Below are positions 1,711 to 30,790 of a stretch of DNA of 40,017 bases, piece by piece. This stretch comes from Gammaproteobacteria bacterium. GTDB taxonomy: Bacteria; Pseudomonadota; Gammaproteobacteria; Steroidobacterales; Steroidobacteraceae. The notes beneath the pieces were generated by a model. It had not been told where the DNA came from and did not search any database. It saw only the letters and a list, made by a program, of their open reading frames with translations. The translations under genes were made by a program, and so were the position numbers. Within the stretch, counting starts at the first letter, position 1. Every line of letters begins with the position of its first letter. The stretch spans positions 1 through 40,017 of the forward strand of contig VBNH01000075.1 of assembly GCA_005878095.1 (NCBI GenBank), written 5' to 3'.

Positions 1711-2886
1711 ATGCCTCGCGATGCGTCCGATATGAGCAACGTTGCAACCCCTAAGCCATTGCGCCGCCTTCGTGCCGGTATGGTCGGTGGCGGGCGTGGC
1801 GCATTTATCGGATCGGTGCATCGCATTGCCGCCGAGCTCGACGGCCAGGCACAGATCGTCGCCGGTGCAATGTCTTCTCACCCTGAGATCGCCCGCGAAA
1901 GTGCCGCCGCCTGGTTTCTCGAGCGCACCTACACCTCCTATGCGGACATGGCCTCGAGCGAGGCAGCCGATCGGGAAGGCATCGACTTCGTCATCATCGC
2001 GACCCCGAATGATCTGCATTACCCGGTAGCGAGGGCCTTCCTCTCGGCAGGCATTCATGTCGTCTGTGACAAGCCCCTCGCTTTGACGCTCGCCGAGGGG
2101 GAGGAGCTGGTTCGCCTCGTTGAAGCCGGCCCGACGTTGTTCGCGCTCACGCACAACTACACGGGCTATCCCGCCGTGCGCCAGGCGCGTGACATGGTGC
2201 GTGCTGGGCAGCTGGGGGAGATCCGCAAGGTCATGGTCGAATACACCCAGGACTGGCTGATGGAGCCACTGGAGAGCCGCGGCAACAAGCAGGCCGCCTG
2301 GAGAACCGATCCGGCACGGGCCGGCCTCAGTGGTTGCGTGGGCGATATCGGTACCCACGCCCAGAATCTGCTCGAGTTCGTGACGGGCGGTCAGATCGAG
2401 GCCCTGTGTGCGGACCTGAGCTGCGTTGTAGCGGGCCGGCGGTTGGATGACGACGCCAGTATTCTGCTGAGACTGCGCGGCGGAGCCAAGGGAACGCTCA
2501 TCTGCTCGCAGGTCGCCTGCGGCGAGGAAAACAGGCTCTCGATTCGGGTTTACGGATCCCAGGCGGGGCTGGAGTGGCATCAGCAGGACCCGAGCACACT
2601 CATTTATAAGCGCGCTGGCAGTCCCTGGGAGCGGTTACGGACCGGACAGAGCTACTTGAGGCCGTCGGCCAAAGCCGTCACTCGAATGCCGGCCGGGCAT
2701 CCGGAGGGTTATCTCGAGGCTTTTGCGAACATCTACCGCGGCTTCATCGAGGACGTGCGCCGAGTCGGCCTGGGTCAGGCACCGGTGCGAGATTACCCCG
2801 GGGTACAGGAGGGCCTGCGCGGCTTGCGCTTCATCGCCCAGGCGGTCGCGAGCTCGCGGGCCGGGTCGGTCTGGCTGAACCTGTAG
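1711..2886 (+). CDS. Gfo/Idh/MocA family NAD(P)-dependent oxidoreductase
   Basis: 391 residues, no signal peptide, so cytoplasmic. The N-terminal Rossmann fold has a glycine-rich loop ([12 protein letters not shown], residues 23-34) and the conserved DKPL motif with K121. The C-terminal domain carries [10 protein letters not shown], giving D212 and H216. The Lys/Asp/His set matches the catalytic triad of inositol and sugar dehydrogenases of this family. Members oxidise or reduce ring hydroxyls of sugars, inositols or 3-keto-sugars. Which substrate applies here is not visible. ATG 1711 is used; ATG 1732 (MSNVATPK) is an equally plausible start, and neither has a strong ribosome binding site. 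The gene stands alone, but its upstream element is shared with the sugar ABC importer at 22878, which suggests a role in the same pathway, for example as a second inositol or keto-sugar dehydrogenase. Confidence 0.9.
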
Positions 2887-2929
2887 AGCGCGGCACGCCG
2901 TGTGGCGCGGCGGAATTCCTCGGCGCCGC

Positions 2930-3541
2930 TCAGAAGCGCCCGCCCGTCTCGACCGCCCACGTTTTGCCGTCGCCGGCCTGCGCGAGCGGCACGCAGGCGT
3001 GATAGGAGCCCGGTATGGCGACGTACTGCAGGACCTGAGTGGCACCGACTCGCGAGGTGAAGAAACCGAGCAATGCGAGCTCCTTGGTCATCAGGATGAA
3101 GGGCCGTCGCAAGGTGCGCGCGTGCGGCCCCGCCGCGCTCTCCTCGGCCAGCGCGATATCGTGGATCCGTTGCACGAGCGCCAGCCGCCGCGGCGCGTCG
3201 AGCCGCACAAACCCCTCGCCGTGCGCGGCCCGGGCGGCCGCATCGAATGCCTCGAGGCCGCTCAGATAACGCTCGCGATCCTCCCGCGGATAGGTATCTT
3301 TCAACATGGCGTCGATGAACGCCGGCACGCCGACATCCTTTGCGCCGGGCGTGGCCGTACGGGGAATCATGATTTCCGCGACTTCGGCCACCAGCTCCGC
3401 CTGCCCCTCGCTGAGGAATCGTGGCTTCCAGGTCGGATTTTCCGCCGCCCGGCAGCCGTCGAGCACGCCGAGCATTGCCGGCGCGGACAGCGTGCCGCCC
3501 ATCAGCCAGGCGACCTGTTGCAGCACTTCGCGGCGGTTCAC
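2930..3541 (-). CDS. Gluconate 2-dehydrogenase subunit 3 family protein (small subunit A)
   Basis: 203 residues, PF13618-like. The N-terminus MNRREVLQQVAWLMGG has a twin-arginine pair followed by a hydrophobic stretch, consistent with Tat export. The mature part has the typical EVAEIMIPRTATPGAKDVGV motif, where proline and glycine residues follow an acidic helix, and the family-type C-terminal region FTSRVGATQVLQYVAIPGS. In characterised FAD-linked dehydrogenases (glucose, gluconate and glucoside 3-dehydrogenases) such subunits stabilise the GMC catalytic subunit and carry it through the Tat system as a passenger. The gene begins 11 bp after the stop of the GMC gene at 3553 and is the last of the minus-strand module 6198-2930. 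A paralogue of identical length lies at 10818-11429. Confidence 0.9.
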   Translation of the reverse strand: MNRREVLQQVAWLMGGTLSAPAMLGVLDGCRAAENPTWKPRFLSEGQAELVAEVAEIMIPRTATPGAKDVGVPAFIDAMLKDTYPREDRERYLSGLEAFDAAARAAHGEGFVRLDAPRRLALVQRIHDIALAEESAAGPHARTLRRPFILMTKELALLGFFTSRVGATQVLQYVAIPGSYHACVPLAQAGDGKTWAVETGGRF

Positions 3542-3552
3542 GGTTGCACTCC

Positions 3553-5277: not shown

Positions 5278-5286
5278 TGCAGCGGA

Positions 5287-6198
5287 TCAGCGGATGGCGC
5301 GCAAGTAGTCGTACGCCACCTGCGCGGCCTGCATCGGACCCACGTGGAACGGACCTTCCTCCTCGAAGAAGTAATGTCGGAGCCCCGCCTTTTCCGCGGC
5401 GGCGAAGATCGGCCCATAGTCCACCACGCCGCGACCGAGCTCCGCCCCGTGCATCGCGCCGAGCTTCGCACCCGCAGGGTCACTGTCGCGCAGAAAGTCC
5501 TTGACGTGAATCATCGGAAAGCGGTTCGGGTACTTGCTGAAATAGTCGACCGGATCGCGGCCCGCGAAAATCATCCAGCCACAGTCGATCTCGAATTGAA
5601 CCAGCCGCGCATCGGTTTCCCGCAGCAGCAGGTCGTAGCCGACGCCTGCGCCGCGTTCGGCGACGAATTCGAAGTCGTGATTGTGATAGACGTACTGAAG
5701 ACCGGCGCGCGCGGCTTGCTCGCCGATGCGGTTGGCGAGCTCGGCGGTGCGCTTCGCCTCATCCGCGCTCATGCCGGCCTGCGGCACGCCGCCCGGCGAT
5801 TGCGGATCGGCTGCCAGCGAGCGCAGCGATCCGCTGGCGGCGTATCTCGCGCCCAGGGCGTGCGCGTCGGCGAAGGCCGAATCCAGATTGCTCATGTCGA
5901 ACCGAAGATGCGCGCTGGGACATGTGAGACCCGCGTCGTCGAGCAATCGCCGGAACTGCCCGGCGGAGAGCTGACCGAACCCCGCGGTCTCGACTTCGCC
6001 AAACCCGATCCTTCGAAGCTGCCTGAGCGTAGCGGCGGGATCCCGCCCGATCTCGTCCTTGACGGTGTAAAGCTGGATTCCGACGGGTTTGCCGAGCGGT
6101 GTCGCACGGATCACTCGCGGCAGGCCGTTCAGGATGAGCGCGGCGGCAGCGTATCGACCCGTGTGTCCCAGGAAGCGTCTGCGAGTACACCTGGACAT
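5287..6198 (-). CDS. Tat-exported sugar phosphate isomerase/epimerase-like TIM-barrel protein
   Basis: 303 residues. The N-terminus (TRRRFLGHTGRYAAAALIL) is a clear Tat signal, so the protein should act folded in the periplasm. The remainder is an AP-endonuclease-2-type TIM barrel. Likely metal ligands sit in YVYHNHDFEF, FEIDCGW, MIHVKDF and the C-terminal YFFEEEGP segment, the usual Glu/Asp/His/Glu arrangement. Family members isomerise or epimerise sugars, and in published 3-keto-glycoside and C-glycoside pathways relatives catalyse elimination from 3-keto-glycosides. A periplasmic location makes a phosphorylated substrate unlikely. It is the first gene of the minus-strand module and sits downstream of the LacI-type operator near 6268. 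True function is not established. Confidence 0.87.
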   Translation of the reverse strand: MSRCTRRRFLGHTGRYAAAALILNGLPRVIRATPLGKPVGIQLYTVKDEIGRDPAATLRQLRRIGFGEVETAGFGQLSAGQFRRLLDDAGLTCPSAHLRFDMSNLDSAFADAHALGARYAASGSLRSLAADPQSPGGVPQAGMSADEAKRTAELANRIGEQAARAGLQYVYHNHDFEFVAERGAGVGYDLLLRETDARLVQFEIDCGWMIFAGRDPVDYFSKYPNRFPMIHVKDFLRDSDPAGAKLGAMHGAELGRGVVDYGPIFAAAEKAGLRHYFFEEEGPFHVGPMQAAQVAYDYLRAIR

Positions 6199-6276: not shown

Positions 6277-6474
6277 AGAAAACCAGTCTGCATCGACCGC
6301 GAGCAGGGTTACCGAGTGGCGCTGCAGAAGTCGAACGCGCGATTCAACCCCGCGCTGACCGCGGTCGGCGACTTCTCCATCGAATCGGGGGAGCGCGCCA
6401 TCGAGTTGCTGCTCGCGCTGCAGCAGCGCTTCATCGCGGTCGTCTGCGCCAGCCACGAGATGGCGACCCGGTGA
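6271..6474 (+). pseudogene. Remnant of a LacI-family regulator gene (ligand-binding domain fragment)
   Basis: The frame ending at TGA 6472-6474 encodes about 67 residues that fit the middle of a LacI-family effector domain. REQGYRVAL resembles the conserved ExGYRxAL helix, GDFSIESGERAIELLLAL is a near-consensus LacI segment, and [14 protein letters not shown] matches the region normally reading TAVxxxNDxMAxG. The N-terminal helix-turn-helix and everything after this point are missing, and no good start codon is present, so it is not a working regulator. The stop overlaps the GTG start of the symporter. A complete LacI gene was probably deleted here, leaving its operator next to the fragment. 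I am fairly sure of the homology and less sure of the exact left boundary. Confidence 0.68.
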
Positions 6475-7715
6475 GCCGACTGATCCGAGTGCGTCTTTGC
6501 ACCATGATGTTCCTGGAGTTCTTCATCTGGGGCGGCTGGTTCGTCACGCTGGGCAGCTACCTGGCCTCGACCCTGCACGCCAGCGGCGCACAGACCGCGC
6601 TCGCTTATTCCACGCAATCCTGGGGCGCCATCATCGCCCCCTTCGTCGTCGGGCTCATCGCGGATCGCTACTTCAATGCCGAGCAGCTGCTCGGCGCCAT
6701 TCACATCGCAGGCGCCCTGCTGCTTTACGCGCTCTACAGCACGCGGCACTTCCAGGCCTTCTATCCCTGCGTGCTCGCGTACATGATTCTCTACATGCCG
6801 ACGCTGGCGCTGGTCAACACCATTTCCTTCCGCCAGATGGACGAGCCCGCCCGGCACTTCGGCGGCGTTCGCCTGTGGGGCACGATCGGCTGGATCGTCG
6901 CGGGGCTCCTGATCAGCTACGGCTTCGCCTGGGATTCGCATGGCGGCATCGCACGGGGCCTGCTCGCCAAGACGTTCCTCATGTCCGCGATTGCCTCCCT
7001 GGCGCTCGGCCTCTACAGCTTCACGCTGCCGCGCACGCCGCCGCTGCGGGAGCCTGGGCAACCGCCACGCCTCGCGCATCTCCTCGGCCTCGATGCACTG
7101 GCCCTGCTGCGACACAGGAACTTCGCCGTATTCTTCCTCGCCTCGATCCTGATCTGTATCCCGCTGGCCTTCTACTACCAGAACGCCAATCAATTTCTCA
7201 CCGAGATTCACGTTGCCAACGCGACGGGCAAGCAGACCATCGGGCAGATGTCGGAAGTTGCGTTCATGCTGTTGATCCCGGTGTTTCTGAAGACCTTCGG
7301 CATGAAGACCACGCTCCTGCTCGGCATGCTCGCGTGGGCTGCTCGGTATCTGCTGTTTGCGTTCGGCAATGCCCATGAGCTGGCGTTCATGCTGATCGTC
7401 GGGATTGCGCTGCACGGCGCCTGCTATGACTTTTTCTTCGTGTCCGGCCAGATTTACACCGATTCCAAGGCGGGCGCGCGGCACAAGGCCGCAGCCCAAG
7501 GCCTGATAACGCTGGCAACCTACGGTGTTGGCATGCTCATCGGGTTCTGGGCCGCCGGCCTCATCGACGACCGGTACGCCGCTGGCGGCGCGCACGACTG
7601 GCAGTCCATCTGGCTGTTCCCGGCCGGCTTTGCGGCCGTGGTGTTCGCGCTGTTCGCGGCGGCGTTCCGCAACGAGGCGCTCACCTACGCCCATGCACGG
7701 AGCACGCCATCTTGA
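6471..7715 (+). CDS. Nucleoside:H+ symporter-type MFS transporter
   Basis: 414 residues with about 12 membrane segments. The start [20 protein letters not shown] and the following TLGSYL align with the beginning of NupG-type nucleoside:H+ symporters, as do [13 protein letters not shown] and [13 protein letters not shown] at 6471 is chosen because the family begins a few residues before this first helix; ATG 6504 would cut into it. The protein sits in the inner membrane. In sugar-degradation clusters, members of this family often occur with isomerases and dehydrogenases and probably carry sugars or glycosides rather than nucleosides; that is inference. It opens the plus-strand module and overlaps the LacI remnant by 4 bp (GTGA). 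Confidence 0.87.
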
Positions 7716-8986: not shown

Positions 8987-9015
8987 CCGCTCGAGCGGTG
9001 CAGCGGCTCAGCATC

Positions 9016-10818
9016 ATGCCCTTCGTGACGGCGAAATCCCAGAAGCACGACTACGATGTCATCGTGGTCGGCTCCGGAGCCGCCGGCGGACAATGCGCCT
9101 ATGCGCTGTGCATGGACGGCGCGAAGGTACTGATGCTCGAGGCGGGACGCCGGTACAACCCCGCAACCGAGACGCCCATGTTCCAGACGCCGGACCAGGC
9201 GCCGCTCGCGGGCGTCGGCACGCCGCAAAAGCCCTTTGGCTTCTACGACGCCACCGTGGACGGCGGCTGGGAGGTACCCGGAGAGCCCTATGTGCGCACG
9301 AGCGACGAGCCTGCGGGTCGCTTTGATTGGTGGCGGGCGCGCATGCTGGGTGGTCGCACGAATCACTGGGGGCGAATCTCGCTGCGCAACGGTCCCTACG
9401 ACTTCAAGCCCTGCAGTCGCGACGGGCTGGGGTTCGATTGGCCGATAGCTTACGAGGACGTCGCGCCCTACTACGACAGGGTCGAGTTGCTGATCGGCGT
9501 ATACGGCAGCAACGAGGGCCTGGAGAACACGCCGGACTCGCCACCGGGGTGCCTGCTGCCGCCGCCCAGGCCGCTGGTCAGCGACCTGCTGATGGCACAG
9601 CGGGCGAAGCGCCTCGGCATAGCGGCGATACCGGGCCATAAGGCGGTTCTGACCCGGCCGCTGGACTTCAGAAGCTCGCCGGCCCGCTTACATCCGGGCA
9701 ATGTCACCGCGCAAAGGATCCTCGCCGAGGACATGCGTGCCCGCGCGGTTTGTCTCTGGGCGACGCCGTGCGGGCGCGGCTGCTCCATCCGCGCAAACTA
9801 TCAGTCGACCACCGTGCATCTGCCGCCCGCGCTTGCGAGCGGCAATCTCGACATCACGACCGACGCGATGGCGTACGAGGTCACGCTCGGGCGCGACGGC
9901 CGGGCTAACGGCGTGAGCTTCATCGACCGGACCACCGGCAAGCCGCAGCACGCAAGCGCACGGGTAGTGATCCTCTCGGCCAGTGCCTGCGAGTCGGTGC
10001 GCATTCTGCTCAATTCCAAAAGCGCACAGTTCCCGAATGGACTCGCCAACTCGAGCGGCCGGGTCGGGCGATACTTGATGGATACGGTTGGCAGCAGCGC
10101 GAGCGGGCAGATTCCGCTCCTCGAGAGCCTGCCGCCGCTCAATGAGGACGCTGCCGATGGCGATCAGCTGTATGTTCCCTGGTGGCTCTACCGGGATCAG
10201 CACGCCGGCAAGCTGCCGTTCGCTCGCGGCTATCATATCGAGTTCGGCGGCGGCAAGCGGATGCCGGGATACGGAACCGGGGCGGCGATGGAATGGCTGA
10301 CCAGCGGCAGCTACGGAGTGAAGTTCAAGCAGGACGTGCGCCGCTACTTCGGATCCTTCGTCCACTTCGATGGGCGCGGGGAAATGATCCCCAACGAGCA
10401 CTCCTATTGTGAGATCGATCCGAGCCTCAAGGACAAGTGGGGCATCCCGGTACTTCGGTTTCATTGGCAATGGTCGGAGCACGAGCTGCGCCAGGCGGCG
10501 CATATGCAAAGGACCTTCGCGGAAATCGTCGACTCGATGGGCGGCCGCACGCGCGGGCCGGTGCAGAGCGACGGCGCCAAGGCCATCGCGCCCGGCGGCT
10601 CGATCATTCACGAAGTCGGTGGCGCGATCATGGGGTCCGATCCGAAGACTTCGGTGACCAATCGGTGGTGCCAGACCTGGGACGTGCCGAACCTTTTCGT
10701 CACCGACGGCGCCGTGTTCGCATCCAACGCGGACAAGAATCCGACCCTCACGATCATGGCCCTGGCGTGGCGCGCGGCGGACCACATCCTCGAGCGTATG
10801 CGGCGCAGGGAGTTGTGA
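9016..10818 (+). CDS. GMC family FAD oxidoreductase B, probable glycoside 3-dehydrogenase catalytic subunit
   Basis: 600 residues from ATG 9016; GTG 8998 would add six. Neither start has a good ribosome binding site. The FAD motif VIVVGSGAAGG lies near residues 15-25. The active-site His and Asn are in IIHEVGGAIMG (H532) and NADKNPTLTIMAL (N575). Cysteines in CLWATPCGRGC occupy the place of the iron-sulphur cysteines of FAD-glucose dehydrogenases, as in the paralogue at 3553. There is no signal peptide. The next gene, overlapping by one base (TGATG), encodes the Tat-tagged small subunit, so a periplasmic heterodimer is expected. Divergence from GMC-A suggests a different substrate or stereochemistry. 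Confidence 0.88.
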   Translation: MPFVTAKSQKHDYDVIVVGSGAAGGQCAYALCMDGAKVLMLEAGRRYNPATETPMFQTPDQAPLAGVGTPQKPFGFYDATVDGGWEVPGEPYVRTSDEPAGRFDWWRARMLGGRTNHWGRISLRNGPYDFKPCSRDGLGFDWPIAYEDVAPYYDRVELLIGVYGSNEGLENTPDSPPGCLLPPPRPLVSDLLMAQRAKRLGIAAIPGHKAVLTRPLDFRSSPARLHPGNVTAQRILAEDMRARAVCLWATPCGRGCSIRANYQSTTVHLPPALASGNLDITTDAMAYEVTLGRDGRANGVSFIDRTTGKPQHASARVVILSASACESVRILLNSKSAQFPNGLANSSGRVGRYLMDTVGSSASGQIPLLESLPPLNEDAADGDQLYVPWWLYRDQHAGKLPFARGYHIEFGGGKRMPGYGTGAAMEWLTSGSYGVKFKQDVRRYFGSFVHFDGRGEMIPNEHSYCEIDPSLKDKWGIPVLRFHWQWSEHELRQAAHMQRTFAEIVDSMGGRTRGPVQSDGAKAIAPGGSIIHEVGGAIMGSDPKTSVTNRWCQTWDVPNLFVTDGAVFASNADKNPTLTIMALAWRAADHILERMRRREL

Positions 10819-12970: not shown

Positions 12971-12972
12971 CG

Positions 12973-13385: not shown

Positions 13386-15209
13386 CTAGCGGTCAGGTAC
13401 GGCATCGAACGCGACGGTCAGGCGGGCCTGCTTGCTGCGAAACGGCACGGTCCCGTGCCAGAAATACGAGGGAAACAGCACCAGCAGGCCAACGCCGGGG
13501 CGTACCGAGTATTCGGCGGCCAGCGTCGGGGCGGTTGCAATACCCGGCTCGCCGAACGTGAGAATGCCATCCCGGGTCTGCGCATCGCTCATGCCGTCGG
13601 GTAGCTCGATGTAGCAGGCCGAGGAGATCCAGCCCCGCGGATGGACGTGGTTGGTGTGATAGCCCGAGCTGTGCAGTCGCACCGACCAGCTGCCGTTGAA
13701 ACGCCAGCGGCCCTTGTTACGGCGGCGCAGGGGATCGGAGCCCTGGCCGATGTGCCCGAGGTAGCGGCGGATTGGCGCCTCGAATGCGCTGAACAGCGCC
13801 CGAATCGCCGGATCGGCACTGCGAGTCAGATCCGAGGTCGTCTCCGTGCCATGGCGCAGCGATTGGAAGAGCAGCGCATGGCCCATGGGATCGTGCAGGC
13901 GGTTGAGGCTCACGCTGACGTCGGCGAGGAAACTGGCTAAGTCCCGCCACGGTGGCGGCACCTCGAGCTCGAACGGTACGACCAGACTCCGGTAGTCGCA
14001 GAGCTGTGCGTAGCGCTCGTCGCCGAGCAGCCGCCAGGCGGTGGTCTGCAGCGCGATGAGATATTGGTCATCGGGGGCGTCCGCCAGCAGCCTCTCGCAG
14101 TGGGTCAGAGCCGTGCGGGCGTCGCCGACGCCGAGCTGGGCCGCCGCCAGCAGGTTTCGGGCCGGCGTATTATCCGGCAGGAGCCGCAACGCCCGCTCGG
14201 CGAGACCGACCGCCGTCGCCGGATCGAACTCGAGCGCCGCGAGGCCTGCGCGGATGAGCAGCATCGGCGGAGCCTGCACGCGCGCAGCCGCGGGAGCGAG
14301 ACACGCGTAGGCCGCGCGCGCATCCCCGGCGCCCTGCAGGATGGCGGCCTTGGCTGCCCGGAGCGTGTCGTCGCCGGGGAAGCGCTGTAGGGCCTGATCG
14401 AGCGCCGCGGTCGCCTGCCCGAGGTCGCCAGCACGCATCCAAACCAGTTGCGCGAGGCTCGTTTGCGCCTCGATGAGCCGCGGCTCGAGCTCGAGGCACT
14501 CGCGGAGCGCCTCCTCGGCACGGTCGAGGGCGCCTTGCGCGATGAGGCTGCGGGCGTAGGTGTTATGAAGCGCCGCGCTCTGGTGCCCGCGCGCGAGCGT
14601 CCGCTGTGCGACCTGCGCGGCTTCAGCCGGCTGCCCGGCCGTATTCAGGGCAATGGCCAGCGCGTGGGCCGCGGCGAAATTGTCCGGCGCCGCGGACATG
14701 ATCCGCCGGTAAGCAGCGATCGCTTCCTCCTGGCGACCGAGCGCGGCGAGTGCGGCAATGTGCTGCGCCGCGAGCTCCGCGTCGGCCTTGCCACTCAGGC
14801 AGAGCGGTGCGGCCGCGGCAAGCGCCTCCCCCAGACGGCCCGTGTCGTTGTAATAGCGGGCGAGCAGCAGGGCCGCACGGGGATAGGGGTGCGGGCCCGC
14901 CGCCGCGCGCTGCAGCAGCGGCTCGGCCTCGCTGCCCCGACCGTTGCCGAGCAACAGCTCGCCGAGCGTGGTGAGCGTTGGCATCCAGTTCGGATCCAGC
15001 GCGAGTGCCCGGCGCAGGAGCGCCTCCGCCGCCGTGGGATCGCCCAGGGCCTGCTTGGCGCCGGCGAGGAGGCGCAGCGCTTCCACGAAGCTGGGGTTGG
15101 CCGCGACGATCGCCTCGAGCTCATCGTGTGCGGCGCGATAACTGCCCGTCTGCAGCAGCTCGCTAATGCGCCGCATCGCCTCGATGAGCGCGGGAGTCGT
15201 CACGGGCAT
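13386..15209 (-). CDS. TPR-repeat protein with C-terminal putative 2OG-Fe(II) oxygenase domain
   Basis: 607 residues. Residues 1 to about 410 are a string of TPR helices, with consensus pieces such as ALALDPNWMPTLTTLGELLL and AEEALRECLELEPRLIEAQ. The last 130 or so residues are a PF13759-like double-stranded beta-helix: GYHTNHVHPRGWISSACYIE gives H521/H523, SYFWHGTVPF gives H585, and R596 in ARLTVAFDA is the likely 2-oxoglutarate-binding Arg. The core matches the separate oxygenase at 12196. Proteins of this design often lie beside TonB-dependent receptors, and here the receptor gene is directly upstream on the same strand (135-bp gap). The TPR part suggests a protein substrate or partner, which is inference. 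No signal peptide. Confidence 0.85.
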   Translation of the reverse strand: MPVTTPALIEAMRRISELLQTGSYRAAHDELEAIVAANPSFVEALRLLAGAKQALGDPTAAEALLRRALALDPNWMPTLTTLGELLLGNGRGSEAEPLLQRAAAGPHPYPRAALLLARYYNDTGRLGEALAAAAPLCLSGKADAELAAQHIAALAALGRQEEAIAAYRRIMSAAPDNFAAAHALAIALNTAGQPAEAAQVAQRTLARGHQSAALHNTYARSLIAQGALDRAEEALRECLELEPRLIEAQTSLAQLVWMRAGDLGQATAALDQALQRFPGDDTLRAAKAAILQGAGDARAAYACLAPAAARVQAPPMLLIRAGLAALEFDPATAVGLAERALRLLPDNTPARNLLAAAQLGVGDARTALTHCERLLADAPDDQYLIALQTTAWRLLGDERYAQLCDYRSLVVPFELEVPPPWRDLASFLADVSVSLNRLHDPMGHALLFQSLRHGTETTSDLTRSADPAIRALFSAFEAPIRRYLGHIGQGSDPLRRRNKGRWRFNGSWSVRLHSSGYHTNHVHPRGWISSACYIELPDGMSDAQTRDGILTFGEPGIATAPTLAAEYSVRPGVGLLVLFPSYFWHGTVPFRSKQARLTVAFDAVPDR

Positions 15210-22877: not shown

Positions 22878-23804
22878 ATGAAGCGCATTGGTCTGGCGTT
22901 GCTCGCCGGCGTACTGCCGGCGCTGTCCGCGGCCCCGCACGCGGCCACGCTGGGCGTCTCCATGGCTTTGTTCGATGACAACTTCCTGACCGCGGTCCGC
23001 GCCAGCATGAAGGAGCGGGCGCAACAGCTGAGCGTCCCGATCCAGTTCGAAGACGCCCAGAACGACATCGGCAGACAGCTGAACCAGATCCAGAATTTCA
23101 TTGCGCAGAGAGTGGACGCAATCATCGTCAACCCCGTCGACACTGATGCGACGCCCAAAATGACTCGACTCGCGGTGCGCGCCGGCATACCGCTCGTGTA
23201 CGTGAACCGCATGCCCGCCGACAAGCAGTTGCCGCCCAAGGTCTCCTTCGTCGGTTCCGACGATGCTCAATCGGGCACTCTGCAAATGGCGGAGGTCTGC
23301 AGGCTCCTGCAAGGCAAGGGCGACATCGTCATCCTGGTCGGCGAGCTGACGAATCAGGCCGCCCGCCAGCGTACCCAGGACATCTATGACGTGATTGCCA
23401 GACCGCCGTGCCAGGGCATACGGGTTGTGGAGAAGCAGAGCGCCAACTGGAAGCGCACCGAGGCCGCCGACCTCATGACCAACTGGTTGAGCGCCGGCCT
23501 GCGTCCGCAGGCGGTGGTAGCCAACGACGATGAGATGGCCATCGGCGCCATCCAGTCCCTGAAGCAGGCGAAACTGCTGTCGCGAACGATCGTCGCGGGA
23601 ATCGATGCCACGCCCGATGCACTCGCCGCAATGAAGGCGGGAGATCTCAAGGCGACCGTATTTCAGAACGCCCCTGCCCAGGGAGCGGGAGCGGTTGATA
23701 CTGCGCTGCAGCTCGTCAGGGGTGAGAAGGTTGCGAGCTTCGTGTGGGTTCCGTTCGAGCTGGTGACGCCCGCAAATCTGACGAATTACCTGGGCAGGCA
23801 CTGA
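22878..23804 (+). CDS. Sugar ABC transporter substrate-binding protein (CUT2, inositol/ribose-type)
   Basis: 308 residues. A Sec signal (MKRIGLALLAGVLPALSAA, cleavage near AAPHAA) is followed by a Peripla_BP_4 domain. Typical pieces are TLGVSMALFDDNFLTAVRAS, QNFIAQRVDAIIVNPVDTDA and VVANDDEMAIGAIQSLKQA. The closest known types are ribose, inositol and galactose binding proteins of CUT2 systems. It is followed after 6 bp by the ATPase gene. Location beside iolD-E-B-G makes myo-inositol, or an inositol-containing product, the most likely ligand; this is from context. AAGGA at 22866-22870 is a possible ribosome binding site. Confidence 0.9.
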   Translation: MKRIGLALLAGVLPALSAAPHAATLGVSMALFDDNFLTAVRASMKERAQQLSVPIQFEDAQNDIGRQLNQIQNFIAQRVDAIIVNPVDTDATPKMTRLAVRAGIPLVYVNRMPADKQLPPKVSFVGSDDAQSGTLQMAEVCRLLQGKGDIVILVGELTNQAARQRTQDIYDVIARPPCQGIRVVEKQSANWKRTEAADLMTNWLSAGLRPQAVVANDDEMAIGAIQSLKQAKLLSRTIVAGIDATPDALAAMKAGDLKATVFQNAPAQGAGAVDTALQLVRGEKVASFVWVPFELVTPANLTNYLGRH

Positions 23805-23810
23805 GCGGCC

Positions 23811-25322
23811 ATGCGCAGCCTGGCCACCGACGCGCCGGATGGCTGCCTCCTGCAAGTCAGCAACCTCAGCAAGGCGTTCCCCGGAGTCGTGGCCCTGGAC
23901 GACGTCTCCCTTCGGGTCAAGCGCGGTACGGTGCACGCCCTCATCGGCGAAAACGGCGCCGGCAAGTCGACCCTGATGAAGATCATCGCGGGGGTTTACA
24001 CCCCGGATGCCGGAGAGCTGCGCCTGCGGGGCAATGCGGTGCACCTGAGCTCTCCACGGCAGGCACTGCAGAACGGCATCGCCATGATTCATCAGGAACT
24101 GAACCTGATGCCCTTCATGAGCGTGGCGGAGAATATCTGGATCGGACGCGAGCCGGTGAACGCCTGCGGGCTGGTCAGCCACCGCGAGCTGCGCCGCCGG
24201 ACGCGCGCCCTGCTGGAGCGCTTAGGTGTAGACATCGACCCGCAGGCCGAGGTGCGCACACTTTCGATCGCGCGCCGCCAGATGATCGAGATCGCAAAAG
24301 CCCTCTCGCATGAGTCCGAGCTGCTCATCATGGACGAGCCGACCTCGGCGCTCACCGAGAGGGACGCGGAGCACCTGTTCGCGATCATTCGCGAGCTGCA
24401 GGCGCAGGGGAAAAGCATTCTCTACATCACCCACAAGATGGACGAGCTGTTCGAGATCGCGGATGAGGTATCCGTGCTGCGCGACGGCAGATACATCGGC
24501 ACGGCAAGTCCCCTCGATCTCACCCGCGACGAGCTCATTCGCATGATGGTCGGCCGCGAGCTGTCGCAGGTCTTCCCGCGCGCGCCGGCGCGCGCGGGCG
24601 CGGTCGTGTTGTCGGCGCGCGCTCTGAGTCTCGAGCCGCAGTTTTACGACATCAGCTTCGACCTGCACGCGGGGGAGATCCTCGGAATTGCCGGGCTCAT
24701 CGGAGCCGGCCGTAGCCAGCTGGCGAAGGCGCTGTTCGGCCTCACTCCGGCGAGCTCCGGGCAGGTTTGGATGGAGGGGTGCGAAGTGAAGCTCGATTCG
24801 CCGCGGGCGGCGATGTCGCGCGGCATGGCTTTCGTCACCGAAGATCGCAAGGAGACGGGCTGCTTCCTCGGGCTCAGCGTGCTCGAGAATCTGGAGATCG
24901 CGGTACTCGAGGGCGACTTCGTGCGCTGCGGGTTCGTCCGCACGCGCGCCGTCACGCAGGCCTGCGCGGCGATGAGCCGGTTGCTGGGCGTCAAGACGCC
25001 CGATCTGCACGAGCGCATCGAGAATCTCTCGGGTGGCAATCAGCAGAAGGTGCTGCTCGGCCGCTGGCTGCTCACGCGCCCGAAGATTCTCATTCTCGAT
25101 GAGCCGACGCGCGGGGTCGACGTCGGCGCCAAGGCCGAGATCCACCAGCTCATCGCGCGGCTCGTCGCCGAAGGCACCGCGGTCCTGATGATCTCCTCGG
25201 AGATGCCCGAGATCCTGGGCATGAGCCACCGCATCATGGTGATGCACGAGGGGCGCGTGACCGGAATCCTCACCCGCGAGCAGGCGGATCAGGTGAAGAT
25301 CATGGACCTCGCCGCGCGCTAG
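23811..25322 (+). CDS. Sugar ABC transporter ATP-binding protein (CUT2, two ABC domains)
   Basis: 503 residues, two nucleotide-binding domains in tandem. Domain 1 has Walker [10 protein letters not shown] (residues 46-54) and Walker [12 protein letters not shown]. Domain 2 has a degenerate Walker A ([16 protein letters not shown]), signature [17 protein letters not shown] and Walker [13 protein letters not shown]. The degenerate second P-loop is normal for RbsA/MglA/IatA-type proteins. It powers import through the permease encoded 20 bp downstream. Confidence 0.93.
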
Positions 25323-25342
25323 GCACTACCGGAAGGCAAAGC

Positions 25343-26371
25343 ATGCCGCAGGCACTGGCACAGCGAACCGTCGATGCCCGCTCGGCAAGGCGCGCGCGAG
25401 GATTTCCGCCCGAGGCGAGCATCCTCCTCGTGCTCATCGGACTCGCGCTCACCTTCGAGCTGCTCGGCTGGATTCTCGTCAGGCAAAGCTTCCTGCTGAA
25501 CGAGCAGCGCCTGGTGGTCATGATCCTGCAGGTCTCGGTGATCGGCATCATTGCCGTCGGCGTGACCCAGGTGATCATCACCGGCGGCATCGACCTGTCC
25601 TCCGGGTCGGTGGTCGCGGTCACCGCGATGGTCGCGGCGAGCCTGGCTCAATCCTCGGATGCGGTCAGGGCCGTTTATCCCTCGCTGACCGACCTGCCGG
25701 TGCTCGTGCCGGTGATGGCGGGTCTGGCGGTCGGCGCTGCAGCGGGCCTCGCCAACGGCACGCTGATCGCCTACACCTCCATCCCGCCGTTCATCGCGAC
25801 CTTGGGTGTGATGGTGAGCGCCCGCGGCATCGCCAAGTGGTACACGCACGGACAGCCGGTCAGCATGCTCACCGATGCCTATGCCGACATTGGCGGCGGA
25901 GCGGTTCCGGTCATGATCTTTCTCGGAACTGCACTGATATTCCACATTGCGCTGCGGTACACGCGCTACGGCAAGTTCACCTATGCGATCGGCGCAAATC
26001 CGCAGGCGGCGCGGATTTCCGGCATCAACGTGGCCGGGCACCTGATCGTGGTCTATACCATCGCGGGAACGCTGTCGGGATTGGCCGGAATCGTCACCTC
26101 GGCGCGCGCCGTGTCAGGTCAGGCGGGCATGGGGATGATGTACGAGCTCGACGCCATTGCGGCGGCCGTGATCGGCGGCGCATCGCTCGCGGGCGGCGTC
26201 GGGCGCATCACCGGCACGGTCATCGGCACCCTGATCCTGGGTGTGGTGACCTCGGGATTCACCTTCCTGAGAATCGACGCGTACTACCAGGAGATCGTCA
26301 AAGGGGCCATCATCGTCGCGGCCGTGATCGCCGACCAGTACCGGCACCGGGCCAGCCGCAAGCGCGCGTGA
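25343..26371 (+). CDS. Sugar ABC transporter permease (CUT2)
   Basis: 342 residues with 8-10 membrane segments. GVTQVIITGGIDLSSGSVVA and IGANPQAARISGINV are hallmark segments of the ribose/inositol permease family (PF02653), and AAAVIGGASLAGGVGRITGT is the conserved late loop. Only one permease gene is present, so it should form a homodimer. The stop codon lies inside a 19-bp tandem duplication (26355-26391). It converges on iolG 47 bp away. Confidence 0.93.
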   Translation: MPQALAQRTVDARSARRARGFPPEASILLVLIGLALTFELLGWILVRQSFLLNEQRLVVMILQVSVIGIIAVGVTQVIITGGIDLSSGSVVAVTAMVAASLAQSSDAVRAVYPSLTDLPVLVPVMAGLAVGAAAGLANGTLIAYTSIPPFIATLGVMVSARGIAKWYTHGQPVSMLTDAYADIGGGAVPVMIFLGTALIFHIALRYTRYGKFTYAIGANPQAARISGINVAGHLIVVYTIAGTLSGLAGIVTSARAVSGQAGMGMMYELDAIAAAVIGGASLAGGVGRITGTVIGTLILGVVTSGFTFLRIDAYYQEIVKGAIIVAAVIADQYRHRASRKRA

Positions 26372-26418: not shown

Positions 26419-27426
26419 TCAGTCGAGGCCGACAACCGCGCCGGTTCGCAGACTCTCCTCGGCCGCCACGGCCAGCCGCAGCGCTGCCAGTCCGTCGGCG
26501 AAGTCCGGGCTCATGGGCCGCCCCTCCTCGAGCGAGGAGACGAACGCATCCACCTCGGAAGTGTAGGCTTCGCGATAGCGCTCGATGAAGAAGTTCAGCA
26601 CCGGCTCGCGCGCCCCCGTGCGCTCCGCGCTCCAGGACTCGACGGTTGTGGCGTACTGGTTGCCCGCCTGCAGCATGCCATTCGATCCGAATGCCTCGAT
26701 GCGCTGGTCATATCCATACACGCAGCGGCGGCTGTTGTTGATCTGTATGAGCGCGCCTGATTTCGCGCGCAGCGAGACGCTGCAGGTATCGATGTCGCCC
26801 AGCTTGCCGATGGCCGGATCGACGAGGTTCGCGCCGAAGGCGTGCACCTGCGCGATGTCGCCCGCCAGATAGCGCGCCATGTCGAAATCGTGAATGCTCA
26901 TGTCGCGCATGAGGCCGCCCGAGGCCTTGATATAGGTCGCCGGGGGCGGCGCGGGATCGCGGCTGGTGATGACTGCCAGCTCCAGAGTGCCGATTTCTCC
27001 GCGCTGCAGCCGCTCACGCAGTGCCCTGAAGGAGGCATCGAACCGCCGGTTGAAGCCGATCATCACCCGCGGCTTGCCGCCGGCGATCTCGCTCCAGCAC
27101 GCCTGCGCGCGCTCCAGATCCAGATCGACAGGCTTCTCACACAGCACCGCCTTGCCGGCCTTGACCGCGGACGCGATCAACGGCACGTGGGTATCGGTGG
27201 GAGTTGCCACCAGGACGCCGCCGACGTCGCCGGCGGACAGGACTTCATCCACGCTGCGGGCGATCTTCACGCCCAATTCCGCCGCCGTTTGCTGCGCGGC
27301 CTCGGCGAGGATGTCGAACACCATCAAGAGTCTGGCGCGCGGGTGCCGCGCCAGGTTCCGCGCATGCATTCGACCAATGCGGCCACAGCCGAGCACTGCC
27401 ATGCCAACCATCGGTGATCTCCGCAT
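26419..27426 (-). CDS. iolG: Inositol 2-dehydrogenase
   Basis: 335 residues, Gfo/Idh/MocA fold, cytoplasmic. The Rossmann loop is AVLGCGRIGRMHARNL (residues 10-25). K98 (CEKPV), D175 and H179 (MRDMSIHDFDMARYL) match the Lys/Asp/His triad known from Bacillus IolG (K97, D172, H176). It oxidises myo-inositol to 2-keto-myo-inositol with NAD+, the first step of the pathway. It is the last gene of the operon iolD-E-B-G, 5 bp behind iolB. It differs clearly from the dehydrogenase at 1711, so the two probably have different substrates. Confidence 0.9.
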   Translation of the reverse strand: MRRSPMVGMAVLGCGRIGRMHARNLARHPRARLLMVFDILAEAAQQTAAELGVKIARSVDEVLSAGDVGGVLVATPTDTHVPLIASAVKAGKAVLCEKPVDLDLERAQACWSEIAGGKPRVMIGFNRRFDASFRALRERLQRGEIGTLELAVITSRDPAPPPATYIKASGGLMRDMSIHDFDMARYLAGDIAQVHAFGANLVDPAIGKLGDIDTCSVSLRAKSGALIQINNSRRCVYGYDQRIEAFGSNGMLQAGNQYATTVESWSAERTGAREPVLNFFIERYREAYTSEVDAFVSSLEEGRPMSPDFADGLAALRLAVAAEESLRTGAVVGLD

Positions 27427-27431
27427 ACCGC

Positions 27432-28235
27432 TCAGGACCGACGGGTAAGAAATTCATAGCCGGGCGCGGTGGTGAATTGCCAGCGCCTCACCGGCCCTGC
27501 CATGACGTTCAGGTAATACAGGTCGAATCCATGTGCCGCGCTCACCGGGTGATAGCCGCGCGGCACCAGAACCACGTCGCGATCCTCCACGGTCATGGTC
27601 TCGTCCAGCGTCCGGTCGTCGGTGTAGACACGCTGAAAGGCGAAGCCACCCGGGCGCGCGAGGCGGTGATAGTAGATCTCTTCGAGTTGAGTCTCCCCGC
27701 CGTGATCGCTGTCGTGCTTGTGCGGTGGGTAACTCGACCAGTGCCCGCCCGGTGTGAGTACCTCGACGACGAGGAGCCGCTCGGCCGCCGCGCTCGCCGG
27801 CAGCACGTTGCGAACATAGCGGGTATTGGTGCCCGCGCCCCTCACCTCCTCGCCGACATCGTCCGGCCGGATCAGCCGCGGCGGGAACCGGCCTTCGGCC
27901 GGCGCCGAGCACACCGCCAGCTCGCAGCGGGTTTGCGCCTCGAGGATCAGCTGCGATCGCGCCGGCGCATAGACCGCAAACGGCTTGCCGTCGAAGGGAC
28001 TGCTCCGTGTGCCGATCGCGCCGAAGGCCTGACCATCGACGCTGACGGATGCGCGCCCGGAGAGCAGCACGAGACACTGCTCCCGCTCGGAGATCTCGCG
28101 CTCGAGCCTCTGGCGGGGATGCAGATCGAAAACCTCGAACCCGACATAGCGCCAGCCCGCGCTCTCGGGAGTGATGCGGTGCACCTGAGCGGCGGCGGGC
28201 GACAAGTCGGGTTTGACGAGCAGTGAAGCGGTCAT
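27432..28235 (-). CDS. iolB: 5-deoxy-glucuronate isomerase
   Basis: 267 residues, close to the usual 270. The bicupin shows the IolB mark WSSYPPHKHD followed by ETQLEEIYYHR, whose His and Glu residues bind the metal, then DVVLVPRGYHPVSAAHGFDL. It converts 5-deoxy-D-glucuronate to 5-dehydro-2-deoxy-D-gluconate in the cytoplasm. Its start overlaps the iolE stop by 4 bp. The next enzyme, the kinase IolC, is not in the window. Confidence 0.93.
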   Translation of the reverse strand: MTASLLVKPDLSPAAAQVHRITPESAGWRYVGFEVFDLHPRQRLEREISEREQCLVLLSGRASVSVDGQAFGAIGTRSSPFDGKPFAVYAPARSQLILEAQTRCELAVCSAPAEGRFPPRLIRPDDVGEEVRGAGTNTRYVRNVLPASAAAERLLVVEVLTPGGHWSSYPPHKHDSDHGGETQLEEIYYHRLARPGGFAFQRVYTDDRTLDETMTVEDRDVVLVPRGYHPVSAAHGFDLYYLNVMAGPVRRWQFTTAPGYEFLTRRS

Positions 28236-29113
28236 TGCACGTGCTCCGCGACCAGACGCCGCAGGTTCCTAAACCCCAGGGACGCATACGTCAGCGGATC
28301 GGCGATCCCGGGATCCTGCTCGGCTTCGAGAATCAGCCAGCCGGAATAATCGCGCAGCTCACGGAACACGCGCTCAAAGGCGACATTGCCGTCGCCGGGC
28401 ACGGTGAACACGCCCGCGAGCACGGCGCGCAGGAAGCTCCAATTCTCGGCCTTCGAGCGCTCGCACACCAGGGCGCGGACGTCCTTGGCGTGCAGGTGCC
28501 CTATTCTCGAGGCATAGCGGCGCGCCAGCAAAGCAGGATCGGCGCCCGCGAACGCCGCGTGTCCCGTATCGAGCAGCAACCCCACGTCGGCTCCCGTGGC
28601 ATCCATCAGAGTGTCGATGTCCTCTTCGCTCTGAACCACCGTGCCCATGTGATGGTGGTACGCCAGGCGGACGCCCTCCGCAGCCGTCATGGCGGCCAGC
28701 TCCGTGATGCGTCGGCCGAATTCACGCCATTCGTTCGCTTTCAGGCGCGGGCGCTGCGATAGCGGACGCTGCAAGTCACCGTGGATCGCGCCGCTGACCT
28801 CCGCGAACACCAGCACCGAGCTGCCGACGGCCTTGAGGAGATCGAGGTGTGGACGCAGGCAGATGAGCTCCGAGCGCGCATCCCGGGCGAGCAGCTGCGC
28901 CGAGTACCACCCCGACACGCACGCCAGCCCGAACCGGCCGAGTGTCGCGGCAAGCTCGCGCGGGTCGCGCGGAAATTTATGCCCGAGCTCCATGCCCTCG
29001 AAGCCGATCTGGCGAGCCTGGGTGAGGCAGGTCTCCAGCGGTGTCTCTGCGCCCAGCTCGCGCATATCGTCGTTGGACCAGATGATGGGATTCGCGCCCA
29101 GACGAATACGCAT
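28232..29113 (-). CDS. iolE: Inosose dehydratase
   Basis: 293 residues, TIM-barrel of the AP-endonuclease-2 type. The N-terminus LGANPIIWSNDDMRELG is the IolE signature. Metal-binding positions lie in the GMELGHKF, VRLAYHHHMGTVVQ, LLLDTGHAAF and IGHLHAKDV segments. It dehydrates 2-keto-myo-inositol to the trihydroxycyclohexanedione used by IolD. It starts 3 bp after the iolD stop and overlaps iolB, so the operon is tightly coupled. Confidence 0.94.
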   Translation of the reverse strand: MRIRLGANPIIWSNDDMRELGAETPLETCLTQARQIGFEGMELGHKFPRDPRELAATLGRFGLACVSGWYSAQLLARDARSELICLRPHLDLLKAVGSSVLVFAEVSGAIHGDLQRPLSQRPRLKANEWREFGRRITELAAMTAAEGVRLAYHHHMGTVVQSEEDIDTLMDATGADVGLLLDTGHAAFAGADPALLARRYASRIGHLHAKDVRALVCERSKAENWSFLRAVLAGVFTVPGDGNVAFERVFRELRDYSGWLILEAEQDPGIADPLTYASLGFRNLRRLVAEHVQ

Positions 29114-29116
29114 GGG

Positions 29117-30790
29117 TCAGTCATCGTCCGTGCGCAATTGCCGGGCAAGCGTGTAGCGCTCGCGAGCCGCTCTGACTTCTGCACGATCCGAGACCTCGGG
29201 CACCGCTACGTCCCACCAGTGTCCGCCCGCTGCGGTGCTGCGAGCCGGGTCGGTGTCGATGACCAGAACGCTCGTACGATCGGACTTGCGCGCCGCGGCG
29301 AGCGAGCCTGCGAGCTGCGCGATGCCCGTCACTTTGCTCGCCAGGGCCCCGAGGCTGCGCGCGTGCGCGACGAAGTCCAGCCCGTCCGGGGCGGCGTATG
29401 AGGATGCGCGCATGTTATTGAAGCTCGCGTTGCCGGTGGACCCCTGCAAGCGCTCGATGCAGCCGAAGCCACCGTTATCGAGCAGCACGATGATCAGTTT
29501 CAGGCCCATGCGTACCGAGGTGGCGATTTCGCTGTTGAGCATGAGATAGGACCCGTCACCGACCATCACGATGACTTCGCGCCGCGGATGGGCGAGTTTC
29601 ACGCCCAGCGCTCCGGCGATCTCGTAGCCCATGCAGGAGAAGCCGTACTCCAGGTGATAGCCCGCGGGCTGCTCCGCCTGCCAGTGCTTATGCAACTCCC
29701 CGGGCAAGCCCCCCGCGGCGCCGACCAGGATGTCGGATGCCTGCGCAGCTCGCTGCACGGCACCGATGACCTGGGCGTCCGATGGCAACGGCTGATCGCC
29801 CGCGGCAGTGAACGACTCCGCCGTCGCGCGCCAGCTGCTTCGCTCCGCATGAGCCCGCTGGGTCCACGCATCCGCAGCCCGCCAGCCACCGAGCGCCTCA
29901 CTCAACTGGCGCAACCCCTCCCGGGCGTCCGCGATCAGCGGCACTGCACCGTGCTTGCAGGTATCCAGCGGTTGCACGTTGAGCGCCAATATCCGGCAGC
30001 CCTTCGAGCGGAACAAGGTTGCCGAGCCTGTCGTGAAGTCCTGCAGACGCGTGCCCACTGCCAGCACCACGTCCGCATCTGCGGCCAGCGCATTGGCGGC
30101 GGCGGTCCCGGTCACGCCGATGCCGCCGAGATTCAGCGGATGGCTTGCCGGTAACGCGGACTTGCCGGCCTGCGTCTCGCCGCTCGGAATGCCATGCCGC
30201 TCGCAGAATTCGCGCAGCGCCGCGCCGGCCTCGGAATACAGCACCCCGCCCCCGCAAACGATCAGCGGCTGGCGCGACTGCATCGCGCGATTGAAGGCAA
30301 CCACCAGCTGCTCCGCTCGCGTGATGCGATCGAAGTACCGCGACAGCGGTCGCAGGCAATCGTTCGCCGTGAGGAGTCCGTCGCTGAAATCCTCGAGCTG
30401 CTGCAGCACCGGATCGGGCCCACGGGTCGCAAACACGTCTCCCGGCAACAGCAGCACGGGCAGCCGATTGACGTGGGCGACGGCCGCAGCCGTCGCCAGA
30501 TTCGTGGCTCCTGGCCCTATGGAGGTCGTACACGCCATCATGCGGCGGCGGTACGAAGCCTTGGCAAAGGCGACTGCCGCATGGCCCATCGCCTGCTCAT
30601 TATGGGCTCGCAGTGTGGGAAGGACATCGCGCGCGGCGTACAGCGCTTCGCCCAGTGCCGCCACGTTGCCATGCCCGAATATGGCCCAGACGCCGGCGAA
30701 CACCCGGCGGCGCTCGCCATCAACTTCGGTCCACTGCGCCGCCATGGCGCGCACCAGGGCCTGCGCCACGGTGAGCCGACTTGCCGTCAA
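29117..30790 (-). CDS. iolD: 3D-(3,5/4)-trihydroxycyclohexane-1,2-dione hydrolase, shortened form
   Basis: 557 residues from TTG 30790. The TTG is preceded by AAAGGAG at a spacing of 6 bases; an upstream ATG at 30835 lacks this, and its extra residues are not family-like. The catalytic Glu is E65 (HNEQAMGHAA). The C-terminal ThDP/Mg motif is GDGSYLMLNSEIATS, followed by NGGFGCIERLQ. IolD proteins usually have 610-640 residues. Here, RYFDRITRAEQL is followed after about 12 residues by QPLIVCGGGVLYS, where about 68 are normal, so the last strand of the PYR domain and the linker to the middle domain appear missing. The frame is intact. Whether the enzyme is active is uncertain. It is first in the iol operon. 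Confidence 0.9.
   Translation of the reverse strand: MTASRLTVAQALVRAMAAQWTEVDGERRRVFAGVWAIFGHGNVAALGEALYAARDVLPTLRAHNEQAMGHAAVAFAKASYRRRMMACTTSIGPGATNLATAAAVAHVNRLPVLLLPGDVFATRGPDPVLQQLEDFSDGLLTANDCLRPLSRYFDRITRAEQLVVAFNRAMQSRQPLIVCGGGVLYSEAGAALREFCERHGIPSGETQAGKSALPASHPLNLGGIGVTGTAAANALAADADVVLAVGTRLQDFTTGSATLFRSKGCRILALNVQPLDTCKHGAVPLIADAREGLRQLSEALGGWRAADAWTQRAHAERSSWRATAESFTAAGDQPLPSDAQVIGAVQRAAQASDILVGAAGGLPGELHKHWQAEQPAGYHLEYGFSCMGYEIAGALGVKLAHPRREVIVMVGDGSYLMLNSEIATSVRMGLKLIIVLLDNGGFGCIERLQGSTGNASFNNMRASSYAAPDGLDFVAHARSLGALASKVTGIAQLAGSLAAARKSDRTSVLVIDTDPARSTAAGGHWWDVAVPEVSDRAEVRAARERYTLARQLRTDDD

What the first reader, a model, noticed from the sequence alone, without database searches (positions are those of the whole stretch)
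1711..30790. Candidate inositol-glycoside utilisation locus combining periplasmic 3-keto oxidation, hydrolysis and the iol pathway
Seen: a TonB receptor, two co-translated secreted glycosidases (one GH65), two GMC/subunit-3 pairs, two TIM-barrel isomerases, a DUF1080 protein, a symporter, a CUT2 importer, iolD-E-B-G and a second Gfo/Idh/MocA dehydrogenase within 29 kb. Known: GMC plus subunit 3 enzymes oxidise glycosides at C3, and DUF1080 and TIM-barrel relatives cleave 3-keto-glycosides; GH65 hydrolases act on alpha-glucosides. Inference: the cell takes up a glycosylated inositol, removes the sugar either hydrolytically or through a 3-keto intermediate, and burns the inositol. I know of no described system with all of these parts in one locus.
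Basis: partly seen in the sequence, partly recalled or inferred. Interest (0 to 1): 0.7.

Follow-up and report, generated by a model that had tools for sequence, protein, structure and literature searches.

The report
Sugar-oxidation module beside incomplete inositol operon
A soil bacterium carries, side by side, enzymes that oxidise and split sugar compounds outside the cell membrane, enzymes that cut alpha-glucosides, and an inositol-burning operon that has lost one key gene; related species suggest that the first and last sets are used together, but not that they form one pathway here.

Summary
The genes named are there, with small corrections. They fall into three modules: (1) a 3-keto-glycoside module, 1711-12141, of the known GMC/subunit-3, TIM-barrel, DUF1080 and Gfo type; (2) a TonB receptor with secreted GH65 and an unnamed GH-like partner, 13386-22730; (3) a CUT2 importer plus iolG-B-E-D, 22878-30796. 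Block 1711-22730 lies between the importer and macB, direct neighbours in two relatives. The iol part is incomplete: iolC-DUF2090, on iolD's contig in all 18 genomes that have it, is cut to a short remnant here and in the sister genome, and IolD has lost 57 residues. Module 2 shows no association with iol in the genus. Module 1 does: presence is correlated beyond shared descent, and two relatives carry iol genes, an RpiR regulator, a sugar porter and a TonB receptor beside the 3-keto module in another arrangement. A 3-keto/iol partnership is plausible, but an inositol glycoside as substrate is unproven, and here the inositol route has a gap. New variant of known kinds.

The parts
1711..2886 (+). 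Gfo/Idh/MocA oxidoreductase, probably 3-keto-sugar reductase (GfoA)
   Evidence: PF01408/PF22725; levoglucosan-dehydrogenase-like 105 bits, cut-off 650; PDB 3v5n 396 bits; a Gfo protein lies near TIMb in 52 of 73 loci, distant ones included
2930..3541 (-). GMC subunit 3 (first pair); twin-arginine leader and lipobox by eye
   Evidence: PF13618 115.9 bits
3553..5277 (-). GMC flavoprotein dehydrogenase (first pair)
   Evidence: PF05199/PF00732; best PDB fructose dehydrogenase large subunit
5287..6198 (-). secreted TIM-barrel enzyme, probably 3-keto-glycoside eliminase (TIMa)
   Evidence: PF01261; PDB 8tcd, 8tcs, 8tct and AtOGE 8bvk, E 9.6e-20 to 1.9e-21; Tat-type leader by eye
6471..7715 (+). 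Nuc_H_symport MFS transporter
   Evidence: PF03825 377 bits
7775..8986 (+). cytoplasmic TIM-barrel enzyme of an unnamed, very conserved family (TIMb)
8998..10818 (+). GMC flavoprotein dehydrogenase (second pair)
   Evidence: PF05199/PF00732
10800..11429 (+). GMC subunit 3 (second pair), Tat-type leader by eye; start approximate
   Evidence: PF13618 80.6 bits
11455..12141 (+). DUF1080, 3-keto-disaccharide hydrolase family, signal peptide by eye
   Evidence: PF06439 138 bits
12196..12882 (+). 2OG-Fe(II) oxygenase, TIGR02466
   Evidence: PF13759; TIGR02466 71.3 over 62.5
13386..15209 (-). TPR plus 2OG-Fe(II) oxygenase, companion of the TonB receptor cassette
   Evidence: PF13759 and TPR; in 10 of 20 GHx loci
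15345..18071 (-). TonB-dependent receptor
   Evidence: PF00593, PF07715; its tree clade mixes GH-linked and iol-linked receptors
18388..20652 (-). secreted GH65, probably an alpha-glucoside hydrolase
   Evidence: PF03632 149.6 bits; PDB 7fe3 (FjGH65A entry) 285.7 bits, then protein-glucosylgalactosylhydroxylysine glucosidase 9sd7
20649..22730 (-). secreted GH-like protein (GHx), no Pfam match, weak resemblance to amylo-alpha-1,6-glucosidase
   Evidence: profile against PDB: 7vma E 2.7e-4; GDE_C best E 0.033, 2 of 10 members match; ATGA overlap with GH65
22878..26371 (+). CUT2 importer: binding protein, ATPase, permease
   Evidence: PF13407, PF00005, PF02653; ribose/galactose types, none of the models listed is over its cut-off (lists cut at 25)
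26419..27426 (-). iolG
   Evidence: TIGR04380 403.8 over 355
27432..28235 (-). iolB
   Evidence: TIGR04378 336.8 over 205
28232..29113 (-). iolE
   Evidence: TIGR04379 379.1 over 290
29117..30796 (-). iolD with a 57-codon in-frame deletion against the sister genome; start approximate
   Evidence: TIGR04377 784.7 over 715 (scanned as 29117-30835); alignment
30792..30896 (-). remnant of the DUF2090 end of iolC
   Evidence: PF09863 positions 245-279, 23.5 bits, below cut-off 27; matches residues 586-616 of the 659-aa IolC-DUF2090 of G046, E 4.5e-4, and in G040 residues 586-615, E 9.4e-6

Best explanation
The locus is a mosaic of three sugar modules. Module 1 oxidises a glycoside at C3 in the periplasm (GMC/subunit 3), splits the 3-keto-glycoside there (DUF1080 hydrolase, or the secreted TIM barrel by beta-elimination), imports the 3-keto-sugar by the MFS carrier and restores a normal sugar in the cytoplasm (TIMb, Gfo reductase). 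Module 2 (TonB receptor, GH65, GHx) takes in and hydrolyses an alpha-glucoside. Module 3 (CUT2, iolGBED) handles inositol. Modules 1 and 2 came to lie between the importer and macB in the ancestor of the window and its sister. Modules 1 and 3 are co-selected in this genus, so they probably serve one food source; module 2 is independent of iol. In this lineage the inositol route lacks its kinase/aldolase gene. Shown: gene content, co-occurrence, order in relatives, the deletions. Inferred: all reactions, all substrates, direction of the rearrangement.
For: Families. The same set of functions is described in Caulobacter, Agrobacterium and Bacillus smithii. Module 1 without iol: iolD and iolB lie near TIMb in 1 of 73 loci, a Gfo protein in 52 (loci of unequal length). 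Module 2 without iol: no iol gene in 20 loci, one TPP enzyme at 26% apart. iol-CUT2-macB contiguous in G019 and G047. G051 has GHx then GGT, with no iol or CUT2 and no significant similarity in the gap. Co-occurrence of TIMb and IolD: 15 both, 3 TIMb only, 6 IolD only, 34 neither, of 58 genomes; with G039 counted as iol-bearing, 13, 1, 5, 29 of 48 in the tree, and the observed association is reached in 0 to 5 of 3000 simulations in each of 12 runs. GHx with iol: 807 to 1592 of 3000 in 6 runs. iolC loss.
Against: The co-occurrence test rests on a two-gene tree with weak deep nodes and on incomplete genomes. Six of the 21 IolD-bearing genomes of the genus lack TIMb. GHx and TIMb show a weak association in one of three subsets (15 and 23 of 3000), and module 1 genes share a contig with GHx in G053 and G051 too, so modules 1 and 2 may not be wholly independent. 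G051 gave an aberrant rpoB branch, so its assembly may be mixed. The iol genes keep dN/dS of 0.14 to 0.26 against G040, like their neighbours, which argues that iolGBED still work in spite of the missing iolC.
Confidence: 0.55

Rival explanations
1. One dedicated pathway for a glycosylated inositol: TonB uptake, sugar removed by GH65/GHx or by C3 oxidation and elimination, inositol imported by CUT2 and degraded by iol.
For: Co-occurrence of the 3-keto module with iol beyond descent; iolG, RpiR regulator, sugar porter and TonB receptor beside the 3-keto module in G032 and G039; a TonB receptor of the same clade precedes an iol operon in G034; all parts in one row in the window, and in G040 on two contigs that meet in TIMb.
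Against: GH65/GHx do not track iol; CUT2-iol stands beside macB without the rest in G019 and G047; G051 keeps the GH block without iol; iolC lost.
Confidence: 0.2
2. Pure juxtaposition: the modules only share a lifestyle (plant or fungal matter in soil) and neighbouring insertion sites.
For: iolD near TIMb in 1 of 73 loci; TIMb and IolD on different contigs in 12 of the 15 genomes of the genus with both, drafts mostly, but contigs of 167 and 655 kb in G010.
Against: Association in all 12 simulation runs and a second adjacency that includes an iol-linked regulator.
Confidence: 0.2
3. Module 1 acts on cyclitols themselves: the GMC enzymes oxidise inositol in the periplasm and the secreted TIM barrel handles the inosose.
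For: The secreted TIM barrel has a weak iolE match (50 bits against a cut-off of 290); a distant Gfo relative in the PDB list is named scyllo-inositol dehydrogenase (5ya8, 81 bits).
Against: Its best PDB relatives are the 8tc* chains and, among the six found, AtOGE (8bvk); DUF1080 and the ThuA and levoglucosan-dehydrogenase-like neighbours of TIMb elsewhere point to glycosides.
Confidence: 0.05

Closest known systems
Caulobacter crescentus lacABC/DUF1080 lactose cluster (PMC9007349, passages seen)
   Different: two GMC/subunit-3 pairs here; no cytochrome gene among the window proteins scanned; TonB receptor, GH65 and iol nearby; substrate unknown
Agrobacterium tumefaciens GlycDH-AtOGE-AtHYD-Gfo operon (PMC10628242, passages and section 7 seen)
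   Same: oxidation, elimination, hydration, reduction with two TIM-barrel type enzymes and a Gfo oxidoreductase; TIMa is a homologue of AtOGE, and the TIMb model matches AtHYD among others
   Different: TIMa carries a Tat-type leader here; DUF1080 present as well; TIMb has no sequence match to it at the thresholds used
Bacillus smithii levoglucosan operon lgdA-B1-B2-C (PMC7676230, abstract and outline seen)
   Same: same four-step logic; Gfo proteins resembling levoglucosan dehydrogenase (335 and 321 bits, cut-off 650) lie beside TIMb in two actinobacterial MAGs, L109 and L116
   Different: GMC instead of Gfo as likely first dehydrogenase; Gram-negative with outer-membrane receptor
Flavobacterium johnsoniae dextran locus with GH65 kojibiose hydrolase FjGH65A (PMC10316084, passages seen)
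   Same: secreted GH65 in a locus with an outer-membrane SusC homologue
   Different: its other enzymes are GH66, GH31 and GH97, none of them called for GHx; GH65 here is below the NCBIfam kojibiose hydrolase cut-off (352.7 against 800)
iol pathway with IolC-DUF2090 fusion (PMC9007349, passages seen)
   Same: iolG, B, E, D in one row; relatives have IolC-DUF2090 directly before iolD in 17 of 18 genomes
   Different: iolC deleted in the window and in G040; 57-residue gap in IolD of the window

Membership tests
3-keto-glycoside pathway with GMC/subunit 3 | GMC flavoprotein with a gluconate-2-dehydrogenase subunit 3 partner | tested here: met
   two pairs
3-keto-glycoside pathway with GMC/subunit 3 | DUF1080 hydrolase or TIM-barrel eliminase by homology | tested here: met
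   PF06439 138 bits; 8bvk E 9.6e-20; activity not shown
3-keto-glycoside pathway with GMC/subunit 3 | oxidation at C3 | not testable with these tools
   needs an enzyme assay
LacABC complex of Caulobacter | third component (recalled to be a cytochrome; one search says only that there are three) | tested here: inconclusive
   no cytochrome c family among the window proteins scanned; the rest of the genome was not searched
Complete iol pathway | iolG, iolE, iolD, iolB over equivalog cut-offs | tested here: met
   IolD shortened
Complete iol pathway | iolC kinase and DUF2090 aldolase | tested here: not met
   TIGR04382 best 44.8 bits against 300 in the own genome, 94.7% complete; PF09863 only a 23.5-bit remnant
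Complete iol pathway | IolJ as alternative aldolase | not tested
   no search made
Complete iol pathway | iolA methylmalonate-semialdehyde dehydrogenase | tested here: met
   TIGR01722 494.1 over 448.5 on contig C157, profile 1-361 of 477
GH65 kojibiose hydrolase (NF053734) | equivalog cut-off 800 | tested here: not met
   352.7 bits
GH65 hydrolase rather than phosphorylase | closest to hydrolases, with the Glu of the ECKGG region of 7fe3 conserved (its role as catalytic base is recalled) | tested here: inconclusive
   best chains are hydrolases, Glu aligned; no assay
2-hydroxy-3-keto-glucal hydratase (AtHYD) for TIMb | fold and closest match | tested here: inconclusive

The most novel reading that the evidence does not exclude
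In this genus the periplasmic 3-keto-glycoside module and the iol operon form one catabolic system for inositol-containing glycosides, brought in by a dedicated TonB receptor and, in G032 and G039, flanked by an RpiR regulator; the window lineage has lost iolC and ends the route by another kinase and aldolase.
Probability: 0.22. Interest if true: 0.65.

Novelty: new variant of a known kind. Interest (0 to 1): 0.38.

Why it matters
The 3-keto route is an alternative to glycoside hydrolases whose natural substrates are mostly unknown (general knowledge). A genus-wide association with inositol catabolism that survives a control for descent gives a concrete substrate class to test. TIMb, kept at about 70% identity or more among the relatives found in several phyla, often beside 3-keto genes, is an unnamed enzyme worth assaying. 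An iol operon under purifying selection without iolC poses a clear question about the lower inositol pathway.

Tried and rejected
GHx was folded alone and failed (pLDDT 33), so its fold is unknown; no fold search was made with it. TIMb found no PDB relative by sequence, alone or as a profile. Galactinol or glucosyl-inositol as substrate: nothing found for or against; the literature searches listed no paper whose title or abstract start describes a 3-keto plus iol locus (listings seen only; the library holds open-licence PMC papers, no preprints). The TonB receptor tree does not decide which module the receptor serves: its clade holds GH-linked (G031, G049, G051, G040) and iol-linked (G032, G039, G034) members. 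The idea that G032 and G039 carry an unknown 434/580-aa protein between receptor and regulator was wrong: it was the antisense of a sugar porter. rpoB alone was too patchy for a tree (34 of 58 genomes), so recA was added (42 of 58); 50 genomes entered the tree, and G051 and G010 were dropped for aberrant branches, leaving 48. In one search G039 was counted as lacking iol; iolB and iolG were then found on its contig, and repeats the test with it as iol-bearing. Presence sets for searches were read by me from the match lists (IolD: best segment about 44% identity or more, partial genes counted). Contig ends make the neighbour counts lower bounds. The scan finds close relatives only.
Full report
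What is there. The window is a whole contig (C51, 40017 bases) of a 3.4 Mb draft genome that is 94.7% complete. ORF lists, codon statistics and family scans give this order: an FtsX permease gene and a MacB-like fragment (below cut-off) at the left end; Gfo oxidoreductase; subunit 3, GMC and a secreted TIM barrel on the minus strand; MFS carrier, second TIM barrel, GMC, subunit 3, DUF1080, a 2OG-Fe(II) oxygenase and a coiled-coil protein on the plus strand; TPR-2OG protein, TonB receptor, GH65 and an unnamed GH-like protein on the minus strand; a CUT2 importer; iolG-B-E-D; then GGT and an amine cluster. GH65 starts at 20652 with an ATGA overlap to the gene before it.

Module 2 is independent of inositol. 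The GH65 is closest to the FjGH65A entry 7fe3, a kojibiose hydrolase, then to protein-glucosylgalactosylhydroxylysine glucosidase, but is below the kojibiose hydrolase cut-off (352.7 against 800). GHx occurs in 42 of 119 genomes, the window's included. Of 20 GHx loci read (of 41 other genomes), GH65 is in 13, the TPR-2OG gene in 10, and iol genes in none (one distant TPP enzyme at 26% identity apart).

Module 3 is incomplete. Of 119 genomes, IolD with a best segment of about 44% identity or more is in 22 by my reading of the match list. DUF2090 is over its cut-off in 18, each time on the contig of iolD, directly before it in 17; in G034 iolE lies between. In the seven of these searched with TIGR04382 the IolC kinase domain lies directly in front of DUF2090, over its cut-off. 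The four IolD genomes without DUF2090 over cut-off are the window's, G040, G009 (63% complete) and G010. In the window and G040 the gene has been deleted between GGT and iolD; in both, about 30 residues resembling positions 586-616 of IolC remain, and no IolC over cut-off is found elsewhere in either. IolD of the window has also lost 171 nucleotides in frame. Yet between the window and G040 dN/dS is 0.26, 0.23, 0.14 and 0.14 for iolG, B, E and D, within the range of the other genes (0.07 to 0.47). As the iolC loss is shared by the two, the four genes seem to have stayed useful after it. How the lower pathway ends is unexplained; iolA is present; IolJ was not searched.

How the locus arose. In G047 and G019 the order iolD-E-B-G, CUT2, macB is unbroken; the contig of G046 ends inside the importer. 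In the window the 21-kb block 1711-22730 lies between CUT2 and macB, and G040 shows the same on two contigs that meet in TIMb. In G051 (82-96% identical proteins) the block is followed at once by GGT, with no iol, no CUT2 and no significant similarity to them in the gap; G051 had an aberrant rpoB branch, so its assembly may be mixed. So the whole locus is a lineage-specific assembly. Insertion is simpler than two losses, but I did not polarise it formally.

Are the modules linked at all? Over 58 genomes of the genus, TIMb and IolD are both present in 15, TIMb alone in 3, IolD alone in 6, neither in 34 (Fisher 9.7e-7); GHx and IolD show nothing (p 0.77). Against simulations on a recA/rpoB tree, with three subsets of tips and iolB/iolG-bearing G039 counted as iol-positive, the TIMb/iol association is reached in 0 to 5 of 3000 simulations in each of 12 runs; GHx/iol in 807 to 1592 of 3000 (6 runs); GHx/TIMb in 15 to 517 of 3000 (6 runs), the low values in one subset. 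In G032, iolC-D-E-B, iolG, an RpiR regulator, a sugar-porter MFS gene and a TonB receptor directly precede MFS-TIMb-GMC-subunit 3-DUF1080; G039 has iolB, iolG, the same regulator, porter and receptor, then Gfo and the same module. The regulator's relatives (E up to 1e-20) lie on the contig of iol genes, close by, in 6 of the 6 genomes of 58 that have one. In G034 a receptor of the same clade precedes the iol operon. Same-contig linkage of module 1 and iol is seen in the window, G040, G032 and G039, out of 16 genomes of the genus with both; most of the others are too fragmented to tell, but G010 has them on contigs of 167 and 655 kb.

Verdict. The GH65 half does not, the inositol-glycoside substrate is a guess, and in this very genome the inositol route has a gap. 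I rate it a new variant of known kinds, of moderate interest.

Noticed in passing
window 7775-8986; L059-L131: Unnamed TIM-barrel family (TIMb), 403 aa, 70% or more identical to the relatives aligned from several phyla, often beside Gfo proteins; no NCBIfam match and no PDB relative by sequence.
   Followed up: partly
window 12196-12882: The 2OG-Fe(II) oxygenase gene has dS 0.68 against G040 and 0.67 against G051, while most neighbours are at 0.1 to 0.3: probably exchanged by recombination.
   Followed up: no
window 29117-30896: 171-nt in-frame deletion in iolD against G040, and loss of iolC with a short remnant, while iol genes keep low dN/dS.
   Followed up: partly
window 30911-39854: GGT, two FAD/GcvT-domain dehydrogenase-like proteins, an aminotransferase over the AptA cut-off and an IclR regulator: a separate amine cluster.
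   Followed up: no
window 20649-22730 and L139-L158: GHx, a secreted protein family with no Pfam match over cut-off and weak resemblance to amylo-alpha-1,6-glucosidases, together with GH65 in 13 of 20 loci: a possible new glycoside hydrolase family.
   Followed up: partly
G000 contig C166, L002: A second DUF1080 protein in the genome (92.4 bits).
   Followed up: no
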